Source: a virus
DNA: 64,000 nt
Reading direction: 5' to 3' (one strand)
IMG/VR virus record: IMGVR_UViG_3300047476_002078
Coordinates: 230,802-294,801 of that record
A program made the translations under genes and the position numbers. Position 1 is the stretch's first letter. Each line of letters opens with the position of its first letter. The notes beneath the pieces are model-generated. The model saw nothing but the letters and a program-made list of their open reading frames with translations, did no database searches and was not told where the DNA came from. Shown one piece after another: positions 37,474-43,321 of this stretch.

Positions 37474-37490
37474 AGAACAAAGGAATGTTC

Positions 37491-38144
37491 ATGCGTGTTT
37501 TGGGCATTGACCCTTCACTTACAAATTTAGGATATGTTGTCTTAGAAGATGGTAAAGTTTTAGAAAAAGGAAGATTTCAGACTAATCCTGAAGATGGTTT
37601 AAATGTTCAAAGGTATTTAATCCAAGCAAACAGGGTTTCTGAAATAATTGAAAAGTACGAAATAAAATACGTTTCTTCTGAATCACCGATATTCCAAGAT
37701 TTCAATACAGAAGTTCTATACGGTCTTCAAAGTTTTTTACATTTAGTGTATTGGGTACACGCTGTAAATGTAGTCATATTATCTCCACTCCAAGTTAAAA
37801 GTTACGCTTTACCGAATTTCAAAGGAAAGATTTTTAAATCTGATATGGTAAAAGCTGCAAGAAAAGATATGGGTCTTCCTGATAACTCACGTCTTGCTAA
37901 TGATGTAGCTGACGCTTATTGGATTTCAAAAATTGGATTACGTTGGTGGATGTTTTATGAAAAACTTATTACAGAAAAAGATTTAACCGTAAAAGAGAAT
38001 CAAATGTTTTTGCACAGTCACACATTTACTCGTGGCAAAAAACAAGGTCAAACAGAAAAGAAGGGTATTGTCTTCCGTAAAAATGAAATTTACTATATTT
38101 ATGAAGAATTAAAAAAACCGATATTTTTATTTAAGGGGAAATAA
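37491..38144 (+). CDS. RuvC-like Holliday junction resolvase
   Basis: The ATG at 37491 has AGGA at proper distance; the ATG at 37485 is too close. The RNase H-fold protein of about 217 residues starts RVLGIDPSLTNLGYVV (first catalytic Asp), has VSSESPIF (catalytic Glu) and ends its core with LANDVADAYWISKIG (catalytic Asp pair). Family members cut four-way junctions during recombination or before packaging. It is followed 3 bp later by recA. The longer C-terminal part after residue 155 is not typical and may bind DNA or a partner. Confidence 0.82.
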   Translation: MRVLGIDPSLTNLGYVVLEDGKVLEKGRFQTNPEDGLNVQRYLIQANRVSEIIEKYEIKYVSSESPIFQDFNTEVLYGLQSFLHLVYWVHAVNVVILSPLQVKSYALPNFKGKIFKSDMVKAARKDMGLPDNSRLANDVADAYWISKIGLRWWMFYEKLITEKDLTVKENQMFLHSHTFTRGKKQGQTEKKGIVFRKNEIYYIYEELKKPIFLFKGK

Positions 38145-38147
38145 TTT

Positions 38148-39404
38148 ATGGCTGTTAAAAAAGGTAAAGAGACTCAGAAAAAGGTTTCTATGTCTGAGCT
38201 TGTAAAAAAACTCGCTGCTAAAAGCGATGATAAAGATTTGTTCTATAGCAAAGAAAGGCACAGAGAAATTGAATGTATTGATACAGGTTCAATTATTATC
38301 AATAAAGTCATCGGTCTTGACGGTATTCCAAAAGGCAGGATAACTGAAATTTTCGGAATGGAGTCAAGTGGTAAATCAACACTTGTACAATCGTTAGCAA
38401 TTCAATGTTTAAAAAACGGAGGAAAAGTTCTCTATTTAGATTATGAGCAAGCCTTCGATACTGAATATGCTAGAAAGCAGGGATTAGATATTGATGACCC
38501 TGACACATTTATTTTAGCTCAACCTAAAACATTTGAAGAAGGCTTTGCAATCTGCCGTGAATTCTTGGATTGCGTGGAAGGTCTTGATCTAATTATTATT
38601 GACTCTGTAGCTGCTATGACACCATCAAAGATTCTTAATGCTGAGATTGAAAAAGAGCTACAAATTGGTTTAATGGCTCGCCACATGGCTCAATTTTGTG
38701 CTGAGATGACAAAAACTATATCTAAGACAAATACAGCTATGGTTGTAGTAAACCAAGTTCGTAGTCGTATTAAAACAAATATGTACGATGCTGGACCTGA
38801 TACAGATACAACAGGCGGTAAAGCTCTCAAGTTTTACGCCTCTTTAAGACTGGAACTACGTCATAGAAAAATTGAAACTATAAGCACTACTAATGACATT
38901 GATGGGACACCTGAAGACAAACCTGTTGGAATGTTATGTCAAGTAATTAACCGTAAAAACAAAGTTGCAAACCCATACCGTAAAGCTGAATTTGCGATTA
39001 GATTCGGAGAAGGTATTGATAACGTCAGAAGTGTAATAGATGTTTCTGAAAATCTAGGTCTGATTAAAAAAGCTGGGGCTTGGTTCAACTTCCGTAAAGA
39101 TATTCCATTTGATTTAGATGAGGACTTGATGACTCAAGAAGGGAAAATGCAAGGACTTGAAACAGTCAGAGAATATTTAGTTAAGCACACAAAAGTTTTG
39201 GCGACGTTAGTGGACAACATTTATGTTGAAAAAGATGATGAAGTCGAAAGAGAGTCTAAAAAAGATGATCTATCGACAACAGGAGTAGAATCTGGAAACT
39301 TCGATGCTATCGAACTTAATGATGAAGAAGAAGCTGCTATAGCAGAAGCTCAATCTAAAGTTAAGAAAAGTAAAAAGAAAGCAAAAGAAGTTGAAATAGA
39401 GTGA
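38148..39404 (+). CDS. RecA-family recombinase
   Basis: A 418-residue RecA-like ATPase. Core: GLDGIPKGRITEIFGMESSGKST (Walker A near residue 66-74), VLYLDYEQAFD (catalytic Glu region), LIIIDSVAAM (Walker B), VVVNQVRSRI (L2-side motif). The C-terminal 70 residues are acidic and lysine-rich (DDEVERESKKDD, then KKSKKKAKEVEIE). It forms filaments on single-stranded DNA for strand exchange. It lies with RuvC-like, Mre11/Rad50-like and Cas4-like genes, a full recombination block. It is more like bacterial RecA than T4 UvsX, but the phage origin could mean either. Confidence 0.93.
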   Translation: MAVKKGKETQKKVSMSELVKKLAAKSDDKDLFYSKERHREIECIDTGSIIINKVIGLDGIPKGRITEIFGMESSGKSTLVQSLAIQCLKNGGKVLYLDYEQAFDTEYARKQGLDIDDPDTFILAQPKTFEEGFAICREFLDCVEGLDLIIIDSVAAMTPSKILNAEIEKELQIGLMARHMAQFCAEMTKTISKTNTAMVVVNQVRSRIKTNMYDAGPDTDTTGGKALKFYASLRLELRHRKIETISTTNDIDGTPEDKPVGMLCQVINRKNKVANPYRKAEFAIRFGEGIDNVRSVIDVSENLGLIKKAGAWFNFRKDIPFDLDEDLMTQEGKMQGLETVREYLVKHTKVLATLVDNIYVEKDDEVERESKKDDLSTTGVESGNFDAIELNDEEEAAIAEAQSKVKKSKKKAKEVEIE

Positions 39405-39412
39405 GGTAGATT

Positions 39413-40576
39413 TTGAAGGACGTTCTTAAAGTATCGGTTAAAAATATACAAGCTATTGAAGAAGCATCTATTGAAGTGGAAGGGTTTACTGGAATTGTCG
39501 GACGTTCCAATTCTGGTAAATCTGCTTTAATTAGGGGTTTATTTGCAGCTTTAACAAATAAGTCTCCTAAAGGCATTTTTCGATATAACACTAAAGAAAG
39601 CCAAGTAAAACTAGATGATGAATCTCGAAATATACATATTGAATGGAGAAAAGGCGACAGCATTAACATGTACAATGTTAATGGAAAAGAGCATACAAAA
39701 GTAGGTAAGGAGCCTCCTCCAGAAATAGCAGATTGGGGATTTAAAACCATTAAAGTTAATGATGAAACTCTTGATGTTCAATTTGCAAGACAACATCAAT
39801 ATCTTTTTCTACTAGATAAATCAGGTGGATTTGTAGCCGAGTTTATATCAAAAATAACTAAAGCTGATATATTAACAGGGGCTTTAAAAGATTGTGAGTC
39901 TGATTTACGTAAAGCTAATGAGTCAATCAAGCACAACGATAAGGAAGTAGAAAAATTAAATCAAGATTTATCAAAATTTGACTCTTTAGATTATTATCAT
40001 GAAAGAGTTAAAAATCTTATTGAAGCTAAGTCAAACTTATTGAAACAAAACGCAGAAATCAAACAAATAGAAGAATGGTGCAAGCAAAAAGAAGTCTTTG
40101 TTTCAGAGTATAAGAAGTTAGGAGAAACCCCAGAAATTATAGAATTTCAATTTGATCTATCAGAATTAAAAAAAATTAAAGATTGGTCAGATGAAGTAGA
40201 AGAACAAAAAAATAAACTAATCTCTGCAAGAAAAGTTGATGACTGTCAAATACCAGAAGTAAGTTTCGATATTGATATATTAAAAGTTTTTGAAGAATAC
40301 TTCCAATTATTAAAAAAATCAAATTCAGACATTCCTTCTATACCAAAAGCGGAATTCAATCTTGATGAAATAAAAGAAATACAAAATTTGATAGAAGAGA
40401 AAGATTCTTTAGATTTTGACAAAGATCAAATTGAAGAAGATTTAGAAAATGCTTGTTCTAAAATAATAGAACTAGAAAAACAAATGAAATCTTTAGAGAA
40501 ACAATTAGGTAAGTGTCCACTGTGCAAGCACGATTTTAAAGGCATTTCGCACGACCATTTGGAGTTTAACGCATGA
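39413..40576 (+). CDS. SbcC/Rad50-like N-terminal half, ends at zinc hook
   Basis: TTG start with GAGGT upstream; no ATG fits better. The 387 residues begin with KVSVKNIQAIEEASIEVEGF and a P-loop VGRSNSGKSALIRG, the N-terminal ATPase lobe of SbcC/Rad50. A long coiled coil follows, ending in GKCPLCKHDF, a CxxC zinc hook. The protein then stops within 20 residues, so it has no return coil and no signature, Walker B or D-loop motifs. These are found on a separate ORF at 42665. The gene overlaps the SbcD/Mre11-like gene by 4 bp. It should act with it in end processing. Confidence 0.82.
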   Translation: MKDVLKVSVKNIQAIEEASIEVEGFTGIVGRSNSGKSALIRGLFAALTNKSPKGIFRYNTKESQVKLDDESRNIHIEWRKGDSINMYNVNGKEHTKVGKEPPPEIADWGFKTIKVNDETLDVQFARQHQYLFLLDKSGGFVAEFISKITKADILTGALKDCESDLRKANESIKHNDKEVEKLNQDLSKFDSLDYYHERVKNLIEAKSNLLKQNAEIKQIEEWCKQKEVFVSEYKKLGETPEIIEFQFDLSELKKIKDWSDEVEEQKNKLISARKVDDCQIPEVSFDIDILKVFEEYFQLLKKSNSDIPSIPKAEFNLDEIKEIQNLIEEKDSLDFDKDQIEEDLENACSKIIELEKQMKSLEKQLGKCPLCKHDFKGISHDHLEFNA

Positions 40577-41526
40577 AATTTAAAGCGATAACTATAGGAG
40601 ATGTACACTTAGCAGATAAAACTCCAGCATCACGCTTAGATAACTATCGTGAAACTCTTTTTGAAGAATTGATGATGGCTAGACAAGTAGCCTTGGAAGA
40701 AAAAGCTGACGCTGTTCTAATAACAGGAGATATTTTTGATGTTAAATCACCTAAACTCAATTCTCATTACTTGGTATCAAAAGCTATATCGCTTTTTTCC
40801 TCATTTCCTTGTCCTGTTTACAGCATCATCGGAAACCATGATATTACTGCTAATAGGATTGATTCTCTTGATAAACAGCCGTTAGCTGTTCTTTTCAATT
40901 CCGGTGCTGTGAAAAGATTAGATAGAGAAACAATTAATGGTGTAGATATTGTTGGAATTCATTTTAACGAAAACAATTCTTATGAAACTTTGTCCCAAAA
41001 GAAGCAAGACGGAAAACCTTTAATTGCTGTATGTCACGTTCTAGCGTCTCCCACAGGAGGAGACATGTTCGGTGAACCTATATTCTCTTATAAAACTTTA
41101 GCATCTAGCGATACAGAAGTAGATGTTTATGTTTTCGGGCATTATCATCACGATCAAGGAATTCAAAAAATTGGAAAAAAATCATTTATTAACATAGGTT
41201 CATTAGCTAGAGGTGCTTTAAGTAAAGAAAATATAGATAGACAAGTTAAAGTTGGAAAAGTTGTATGGGATGGTAAAAAATTTGAATGTTCTGAAATCCC
41301 ATTACCTGTTAAGCCCGGAAGTGAAATTTTCAATATTGAAAAGAAACAAGAGCTTGAACACAGAGAAACAGAAATTGAAAAATTTGTATCCACATTAAAT
41401 AAAACTGACTTATTTGAAAACATCTCCACGCTAGAAGAAACTATAAAAGAAATGCGTCTTGATTCCGCTATCCGAATCCGTGTTACGGAATATTTGAATA
41501 ATAGAGGGGCTGGGATAAACGTATGA
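40573..41526 (+). CDS. SbcD/Mre11-like nuclease
   Basis: A 317-residue metallophosphatase. Motifs: TIGDVHLAD (D-x-H), ITGDIFDVKS (GD), SIIGNHDIT (GNHD), VCHVLAS and VFGHYHHDQG (GHxH). Together these bind two metal ions. The family is the nuclease subunit of the Mre11-Rad50 complex, trimming DNA ends and hairpins. Its gene lies between the Rad50-like N-half and the Cas4-like nuclease, with 4-bp overlaps on both sides. Confidence 0.93.
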   Translation: MKFKAITIGDVHLADKTPASRLDNYRETLFEELMMARQVALEEKADAVLITGDIFDVKSPKLNSHYLVSKAISLFSSFPCPVYSIIGNHDITANRIDSLDKQPLAVLFNSGAVKRLDRETINGVDIVGIHFNENNSYETLSQKKQDGKPLIAVCHVLASPTGGDMFGEPIFSYKTLASSDTEVDVYVFGHYHHDQGIQKIGKKSFINIGSLARGALSKENIDRQVKVGKVVWDGKKFECSEIPLPVKPGSEIFNIEKKQELEHRETEIEKFVSTLNKTDLFENISTLEETIKEMRLDSAIRIRVTEYLNNRGAGINV

Positions 41527-42347
41527 CAGATATTAAAACTTTGGATTACAGTGGTTTAAAGGACTATGAAGATTGCCCTCAAAGATTTTTATGGTCACGT
41601 ATTGAAAAGCGTAAACCTAAAATTCCTGAAAACGCTTACTATTGGATTTGTGGCACAGTTAAGCAAAAAATGTTCGAGCTTTTTGTTAATGAGCGTTGGT
41701 ATCTGAAAGGGAAAGACTGTGTTCCTTTTATGGAAAGTATGGCTCCAAAACTTTTTGAAGATACTCTCAAATGGGCAAAAGTTGATTGGTCTGCCAGTTA
41801 TGCCAAATTAACCAAAGAGGATATGATACAAGAAGTTAAAAAAGGGGTCAAAGATGGCATTAAAATAATCAAAGACCATCGGTTAATTTCCGCAGCCTCT
41901 AAATCTGAAATAAAATTAACTGCGAATATTAATAATTGGTTTTCATTAGTTGGAAAAGTTGATTTCATAATCAAGCATAATGATACAAATGAGTCCATAA
42001 TAGTAGATGGCAAAGATACAGTAGATTCCGCTAAGATGCCTTCAGTAGACCCAAGACAGTTATGGATTTATAGCTTATTGCATCAAAGAAATTACGGAGA
42101 TTATCCAAATAAGCTAGGTTTTCTTTTTTGGAGACATGATACCGTTTTGTATTATGATGCTAAAGAAGGAATCGAAGCTGTCACTGAATGGGCAAAAAAG
42201 TCTTTCTGGGACATTAAGAAAGACAAATTTGAGCCAAAGCCTTCCCAATCTGCTTGCTTTTTTTGCAAGTATAAAAATGAATGTGACGCTTATAAAACTG
42301 AATCAGAGCTACTAAACATACCCGAAGGTGACGAAATAACTTTTTGA
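41523..42347 (+). CDS. PD-(D/E)XK nuclease, Cas4/RecB-like, with cysteine cluster
   Basis: A 274-residue protein. YSGLKDYEDCPQRFLW at the start is the typical S-x3-YxxCPxxF motif of RecB-nuclease/Cas4 proteins. The catalytic core is VGKVDFII then IIVDGKDT (D and DGK). CFFCKYKNEC at the end provides three cysteines; with the N-terminal CPQRF they can hold a 4Fe-4S cluster. Such enzymes resect single-stranded DNA ends. It is between SbcD and the C-half of Rad50, so it likely belongs to the same end-processing set. The Fe-S need may connect to the NFU1-like gene at 47503. Confidence 0.85.
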   Translation: MTDIKTLDYSGLKDYEDCPQRFLWSRIEKRKPKIPENAYYWICGTVKQKMFELFVNERWYLKGKDCVPFMESMAPKLFEDTLKWAKVDWSASYAKLTKEDMIQEVKKGVKDGIKIIKDHRLISAASKSEIKLTANINNWFSLVGKVDFIIKHNDTNESIIVDGKDTVDSAKMPSVDPRQLWIYSLLHQRNYGDYPNKLGFLFWRHDTVLYYDAKEGIEAVTEWAKKSFWDIKKDKFEPKPSQSACFFCKYKNECDAYKTESELLNIPEGDEITF

Positions 42348-42373
42348 CTTTACCGTAAATTGTAATTTAAAAT
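42344..42373 (+). promoter_or_regulatory. Predicted promoter with TTTACCGTAAA box
   Basis: TTGACT (42344-42349), 18-bp spacer, TAAAAT (42368-42373). TTTACCGTAAA covers 42349-42359. It overlaps the stop of the Cas4-like gene and precedes the coiled-coil gene at 42384, so the Rad50 C-half would be separately promoted from the N-half. Confidence 0.5.
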
Positions 42374-42383
42374 GGAGATCATT

Positions 42384-42668
42384 ATGGCAGAATTAAATGA
42401 GCTTGTAAGTAAATACCAAAACATACAAAAAAGTATTGAGCAATCAAGAGACTTAAAAGCACGTCTTGAAGAAAGAAAGAAAAATGTTCATAAACAACTG
42501 AGCACGTTATTAGATAAAATTAAATCTCAAGGTTATGACCCAAAAAACCTTAAAGAAATCAGAGATCAAAAAATACAAGAACTCGAAAATCTTGTTAAAG
42601 AAAAAGAACAAGAGGTAAAAGAAGTTCACGAAAAATTAAAAGCTATTGATATTGAGACATCTCTATGA
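42384..42668 (+). CDS. Small coiled-coil protein, possible Rad50 coil fragment
   Basis: ATG 42384 is used because GGAG (42374-42377) precedes it; an upstream ATG at 42372 overlaps that site. The 94 residues are almost entirely charged helix (QNIQKSIEQSRDLKARLEER and KEKEQEVKEVHEKLKAID). Placed directly before the Rad50 C-lobe (4-bp overlap) and after the hook-ending N-half, it may be part of the returning coiled coil. It lacks a CxxC of its own. Alternatively it is an unrelated structural protein. Confidence 0.6.
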   Translation: MAELNELVSKYQNIQKSIEQSRDLKARLEERKKNVHKQLSTLLDKIKSQGYDPKNLKEIRDQKIQELENLVKEKEQEVKEVHEKLKAIDIETSL

Positions 42669-43321
42669 TGGATTTGAATATTTTTGAGAAAAATTTAAGC
42701 GATCTCTCCGATCTTCAGCAAAAGCTCATCGGAGAGCGTTCTGCTTTATTAAGAAAGCATACTCAAAAAATTCAAGAATTAGAAAAATTAAAATTAGAAA
42801 GTCTGGAAATTCAAAAAGCAAAGCTCGTTCTTGAAGATTTGATAAAACAGTTTATCGGGTTTCAATTAGAAAAAATTCGAGAATATGTTTCTTACGGTCT
42901 TAAAACGGTTATTCCAGATCAAAACATTGAATTTGATTGCAACGTAACAACGAAAATGAATAAGCCTTGGGTTGAACTTCTCACTAAAAATAGTGAAGGT
43001 GTTTCGGAAAATGCTTTAGAAGCTTTTGGAGGTTCAGTAGCTCAAGTTGAATCTTTGATTTTAAGAGTATTAGCGATACTGCAATTAAAACTTTACCCTA
43101 TGATTGTATTGGACGAAAGTTTAAATGCTGTTAGTGAAGAGTATCTGCCAAATTTATCAGTTTTATTGAATGAACTGAGTAAACAATTAAACATCAAAAT
43201 ACTTTTAGTTACGCATAATAAAGAAATTCTAGCAAACGCTACAAGAGTTTATCGAGCTACTGAAACATCTCGTGGATTGAAATTTACGGAAGTTCACTCT
43301 TCTGAAATGGTGACTACATGA
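42665..43321 (+). CDS. SbcC/Rad50-like C-terminal half
   Basis: A 218-residue protein beginning with a short coiled coil (QKIQELEKLKLESLEIQKAK). It then has the C-terminal ATPase lobe: FGGSVAQVESLILRVLAI (ABC signature, normally LSGG), MIVLDESLNAVS (Walker B and D-loop) and KILLVTHNKE (H-switch). It has no P-loop, so it needs the N-terminal half at 39413 to form an ATPase. This split arrangement is unusual for phages. The signature reads FGGS rather than LSGG. The stop overlaps the next gene by 4 bp. Confidence 0.82.
   Translation: MMDLNIFEKNLSDLSDLQQKLIGERSALLRKHTQKIQELEKLKLESLEIQKAKLVLEDLIKQFIGFQLEKIREYVSYGLKTVIPDQNIEFDCNVTTKMNKPWVELLTKNSEGVSENALEAFGGSVAQVESLILRVLAILQLKLYPMIVLDESLNAVSEEYLPNLSVLLNELSKQLNIKILLVTHNKEILANATRVYRATETSRGLKFTEVHSSEMVTT

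What the first reader, a model, noticed from the sequence alone, without database searches (positions are those of the whole stretch)
39413..43321. Rad50/SbcC split into two or three polypeptides
The N-lobe with P-loop and coil stops just after the CPLC hook (39413-40576). The signature, Walker B and H-switch are on a separate 218-residue ORF (42665-43321), with a 94-residue coil protein between. SbcD and a Cas4-like nuclease lie inside the split. A second promoter-like sequence (42344) precedes the C-half. This may let the phage tune or exchange halves.
Basis: partly seen in the sequence, partly recalled or inferred. Interest (0 to 1): 0.7.

Follow-up and report, generated by a model that had tools for sequence, protein, structure and literature searches.

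The report
Rad50-like repair ATPase in three pieces
This large phage makes its Rad50/SbcC-like DNA-end repair ATPase as separate proteins, with the first chain ending at the zinc-hook tip, and the same split recurs in about seventy other, mostly uncultured, phages, so it is a stable natural design and not a sequencing error.

Summary
The N-half (Walker A, Q-loop, arm) stops 16 residues after a CPLC hook. The C-half (signature region, Walker B, H-switch) is a separate 218-aa gene. SbcD, a Cas4-like nuclease and a 94-aa helical protein (K) lie between. There is no other SbcC in the 355,874-bp record. The split is not peculiar to this phage: the same N, K and C genes occur in about 70 distinct viral contigs, in phages vB_BboS-125, Tunturi_5 and Mvi-JY20, and in bacterial (mostly Firmicute) genomes. 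No fused version was found. In 71 of 71 viral N-halves the chain ends 2-21 residues after the last CxxC. K accompanies N and C in 68 of 69 loci. All three are under purifying selection. N and C share one history, so there is no sign that halves are exchanged. The 42344 "promoter" is no better than chance. Most likely N and C reassemble into one Rad50-type head that works with SbcD (inferred from kept motifs and from Rad50 heads crystallised as two chains). K probably completes the arm or joins the halves (inferred). The ABC signature is non-canonical, so I call it a divergent multi-chain variant. I found no published description.

The parts
39413..40576 (+). SbcC/Rad50-like N-half: lobe I with Walker A, Q-loop, helical arm and terminal CPLC zinc-hook motif
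   Evidence: PF13476 1.4e-8; phrog_16465 2.1e-18; profile matches Rad50 N chains and, weakly (E 0.0026), the Rad50 hook structure 1l8d; 71/71 viral homologues end 2-21 aa after CxxC
40573..41526 (+). SbcD/Mre11-like nuclease (motifs GDVH, GDIF, GNHD, CHV, GHYH)
   Evidence: PF00149 3.6e-15; phrog_100 4.9e-11; motifs
41523..42347 (+). Cas4-like PD-(D/E)XK nuclease with CxxCx5C; belongs to the cluster, not part of the ATPase itself
   Evidence: PF12705 1.2e-13; cas4 profile 2.4e-7, below its cut-off; motifs
42384..42668 (+). K: 94-aa coil protein, two predicted helices around a conserved G-x-D-P turn; third component
   Evidence: family alignments; present in 68 of 69 loci that hold N and C; the Bacillus-phage homologue is phrog_18563
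42665..43321 (+). SbcC/Rad50-like C-half: base coil, signature region FGGSVA, Walker B (MIVLDES), H-switch (LLVTHN)
   Evidence: phrog_15167 1.8e-17; profile matches Rad50 C chains 3qkr_B, 1us8_B, 1f2t_B; motif counts
37485..39404 (+). upstream neighbours in the same run of genes: RuvC-like resolvase (37485-38144) and RecA/UvsX (38148-39404)
   Evidence: same order in L008 and L002

Best explanation
It is a Rad50/SbcC-like ATPase encoded as separate chains. The N-half (lobe I, arm, hook) and C-half (base coil, lobe II) assemble after translation into one ABC-type head. Two heads dimerise around ATP and gate or activate SbcD to process DNA ends. Two N-chains can join through their terminal CPxC motifs by a shared zinc. 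The Cas4-like nuclease and the RecA-type recombinase of the same cluster then resect and recombine the ends. The small protein K most likely packs on the arm or holds the two chains together, replacing return coil lost by the split. Shown by sequence: separate genes, kept catalytic motifs, hook at the chain end, wide conservation, co-inheritance, purifying selection. Inferred: reassembly, ATPase activity, zinc joining, action on DNA ends, K's role.
For: Best PDB sequence matches include Rad50 heads solved as two separate chains: N to 1f2t_A/1ii8_A/3qkr_A, C to 1f2t_B/1ii8_B/3qkr_B. N's tail matches Rad50 hook structures weakly. Walker A G-K, Walker B D-E and hook cysteines are kept in all aligned members; Q-loop 69/71, H-switch His 75/77. 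SbcD lies in the same cluster in most loci. In bacterial genome loci the order is N-K-C-SbcD, the order of one Rad50 chain. Isolate Mvi-JY20 has N-SbcD-K-C with overlapping genes. No full-length SbcC was seen beside the split genes in 26 records. dN/dS is 0.02-0.32 in N, K and C.
Against: The ABC signature is GG[GAS]-hydrophobic/Pro, not SGGE/SKGQ. N arms vary from 150 to 348 residues while C coils (median 78) and K (median about 90) do not vary with them, so a classic full-length antiparallel coil is unlikely. Magritte and one relative lack the hook.
Confidence: 0.8

Rival explanations
1. The two halves do not form one head: N and C each pair with other partners, or one is a decayed remnant.
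For: In Tunturi_5 and Magritte N and C lie far apart; some contigs hold C with no N found, though most of those are fragments.
Against: Each half lacks the other's essential motifs; both are under purifying selection, co-inherited, and no other SbcC was seen in 26 split-carrying records.
Confidence: 0.1
2. The genes are joined at RNA or protein level (intron, trans-splicing, split intein or frameshift) to give a normal SbcC.
For: Intein-like inserts do occur in this module: in the Walker A of N in L033 and L040 and in SbcD of L013 and L053.
Against: Different complete genes lie between the halves, often over several kb and sometimes at unlinked places; N ends just after CxxC with no intein-like tail in the sequences read; K and C are in different frames in the window (ATGA overlap).
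Confidence: 0.04
3. K is not part of the ATPase but a separate small regulator or DNA-binding protein that travels with it.
For: Weak match to the GapR DNA-binding domain, PF10073 1.4e-4, below its cut-off; K is often separated from C by about 1.2 kb, which in L002 holds a clamp-like gene.
Against: K is present with N and C in 68 of 69 loci, and in Firmicutes sits between them. Coil composition explains the weak database matches.
Confidence: 0.35

Closest known systems
Rad50/SbcC with Mre11/SbcD (cellular; T4 gp46/gp47 in phages)
   Same: ABC head motifs on two lobes, CxxC hook at the end of the arm, SbcD partner encoded nearby
   Different: Several chains instead of one; break at the hook; extra small protein K; signature GG[GAS]-hydrophobic instead of SGGE; short C-side coil. 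T4 gp46 is one 560-aa chain with CPTC inside it.
Crystallised Rad50 catalytic domains in two chains (PDB 1f2t, 1f2u, 1ii8, 1us8, 3qkr, 3qks)
   Same: Separate N and C polypeptides make up the head; among the best sequence matches to the two halves here
   Different: Those were cut in the laboratory (own knowledge); the split here is natural and leaves the arm and hook on the N chain
PHROG families 16465 ('exonuclease'), 18563 (unknown) and 15167 ('ATPase')
   Same: Exact families of N, K and C in Bacillus phage vB_BboS-125; the window's N and C match 16465 and 15167
   Different: Filed as three unrelated entries; not named as parts of one enzyme
Split enzymes already reported in jumbo phages (DNA polymerase III alpha, RNA polymerase beta/beta'; PMC7824862)
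   Same: One cellular chain encoded as several phage genes
   Different: That survey calls SbcC/SbcD practically universal in jumbo phages; its passages on SbcC, Rad50 and 'split' do not mention a split SbcC

Membership tests
Rad50/SbcC | Walker A and Q-loop in the N lobe | tested here: met
   G30, G35, K36 in 71/71; Q127 in 69/71
Rad50/SbcC | Walker B and H-switch in the C lobe | tested here: met
   DE 77/77, H 75/77
Rad50/SbcC | ABC signature S-G-G / S-K-G followed by E or Q | tested here: not met
   GG[GAS] then V/P/L/I/A/M in 75 of 77; the profile alignment sets Ser of the Rad50 signature against Gly
Rad50/SbcC | CxxC zinc hook at the far end of the arm | tested here: met
   71/71 viral N-halves, at the chain end; weak match to hook structure 1l8d; missing in Magritte and G014
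Rad50/SbcC | N lobe, coils and C lobe on one polypeptide | tested here: not met
   separate ORFs in every locus that holds both
Rad50/SbcC | long antiparallel coiled coil | tested here: inconclusive
   arm lengths of N and C do not co-vary; repeats of about 40 aa in many N arms, none called in the window; no structure model
Rad50/SbcC | SbcD/Mre11 partner | tested here: met
   SbcD gene beside N or C in most loci; DxH motif in 75/75 SbcD, GNHD in 65/75
Rad50/SbcC | ATP-dependent DNA-end nuclease activity with SbcD | not testable with these tools
   needs biochemistry

The most novel reading that the evidence does not exclude
An ancient phage lineage of Rad50-type machines made of three subunits (N, K, C), in which the hook-bearing arm is one self-supporting chain and K is an obligate third subunit, so that head opening and arm geometry are controlled by subunit assembly and not by a continuous coil.
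Probability: 0.35. Interest if true: 0.75.

Novelty: new variant of a known kind. Interest (0 to 1): 0.58.

Why it matters
Rad50/SbcC is treated as one chain whose coil signals between head and hook. A family that keeps the head in two chains and the hook at a free chain end would show directly whether a continuous coil is needed for that signalling. It also links three PHROG families that are annotated separately, and explains apparently truncated SbcC genes in many uncultured large phages.

Tried and rejected
An apparent link between short N arms and absence of K was an artefact of a weak K profile: a second profile found K there too. Apparent long C ORFs in GC-rich contigs (L041, L047, L049, L053, L044) were misplaced starts, not fusions. 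The 161395 phrog_77 match in the own record is only a coiled-coil ORF. Apparent two-piece N matches in the Magritte group were gaps in the profile match, not broken genes. Two profile queries to the genome collection had no usable pattern; a Bacillus-type query worked. K against PDB gave only coil and repeat matches. T5 was not held under its accession.

Full report
What is in the sequence. The window lies at 230802-294801 of a 355,874-bp virus record. The N-half (39413-40576) starts at TTG after a GAGG site, carries the P-loop GRSNSGKS, and ends sixteen residues after CPLC. The C-half (42665-43321) carries FGGSVA, MIVLDES and LLVTHN. Between them are an SbcD-like nuclease, a Cas4-like nuclease and a 94-residue helical protein, here called K. 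N/SbcD, SbcD/nuclease and K/C overlap by ATGA. RuvC-like and RecA-like genes stand just upstream.

What the halves are. A profile of N matches Rad50 N chains and, weakly at its tail, the Rad50 hook structure 1l8d; a profile of C matches Rad50 C chains. Several of these PDB entries are Rad50 heads present as two separate chains, a precedent for a head built from two polypeptides. The own record holds no further N or C part.

How widespread. Searches of viral contigs returned 80 C and 39 N loci. After removing duplicates, 69 loci hold both N and C, always as separate ORFs. Contigs reach 485 kb. Only a handful of 50,697 phage records carry it: vB_BboS-125, Tunturi_5, Magritte, Mvi-JY20 and the metagenomic LR745208. 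Ten bacterial genome loci hold C, nearly all from Firmicutes; nine have N in the stretch held, in the order N-K-C-SbcD. I take these for prophages but did not test that. In 26 split-carrying records no matching ORF exceeds 476 residues, so no full-length SbcC was seen beside the halves. Four of the bacterial genomes carry long host SMC/SbcC-type ORFs of 1,015-1,277 residues as well.

Where the chain breaks. In 71 of 71 viral N-halves the protein ends 2-21 residues after its last CxxC. Magritte and G014 lack the motif. The break is thus at the hook tip. N arms vary from 150 to 348 residues, while the C coil and K keep their length and do not follow. Many N arms hold repeats of about 40 residues, though none was called in the window. 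The arm may therefore be self-supporting; this is inference.

The third protein. K was seen first in some loci and missed in others; a second profile then found it in 68 of 69 loci with N and C. Coil bias may add a few false matches, but its usual place, just before C or about one gene before it, is consistent. Its sequence reads as two helices around a G-x-D-P turn. I propose that it packs on the arm or joins N to C; this is not shown.

History and function. N and C distances correlate with each other about as well as with RecA, and their trees show one conflict at support 0.95. N, K and C all show dN/dS of 0.02-0.32 in close pairs. N-halves form one clade (support 0.89) against a small set of SbcC, SMC, RecN and T4 gp46 sequences, which suggests one origin of the split; the outgroup sample is too small to say which relative is nearest.

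Difference from the known family. The ABC signature is GG[GAS] followed by a hydrophobic residue or proline, not SGGE. With the multi-chain build this makes two departures from the family definition, so I call it a Rad50/SbcC-like variant that most likely works like Rad50/SbcC.

Literature. Searches of the held open-access library found no description of a split SbcC or Rad50 in phages. A jumbo-phage survey reports split polymerases and near-universal SbcC/SbcD (PMC7824862), and the vB_BboS-125 genome paper does not mention SbcC (PMC6375668). Subscription papers and preprints were not searched, so novelty is provisional.

Noticed in passing
L033 3388-5634; L040 2695-4815: An intein-like insert interrupts the Walker A of the N-half (..NNSGK|A..HNTAL..).
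   Followed up: partly
L013 5463-7529; L053 3485-5812: SbcD of the same module carries a large intein-like insert.
   Followed up: partly
L007 6975-7547: An AP2-domain gene sits between N and K in Bacillus phage vB_BboS-125.
   Followed up: no
L002 18494-19627: A 377-aa ORF that looks like a sliding clamp lies between K and C in LR745208; a gap of similar size (about 1.2 kb) separates K from C in many relatives but not in the window.
   Followed up: partly
L006 5983-7035 and L167: N-halves of Magritte and one relative have no terminal CxxC.
   Followed up: partly
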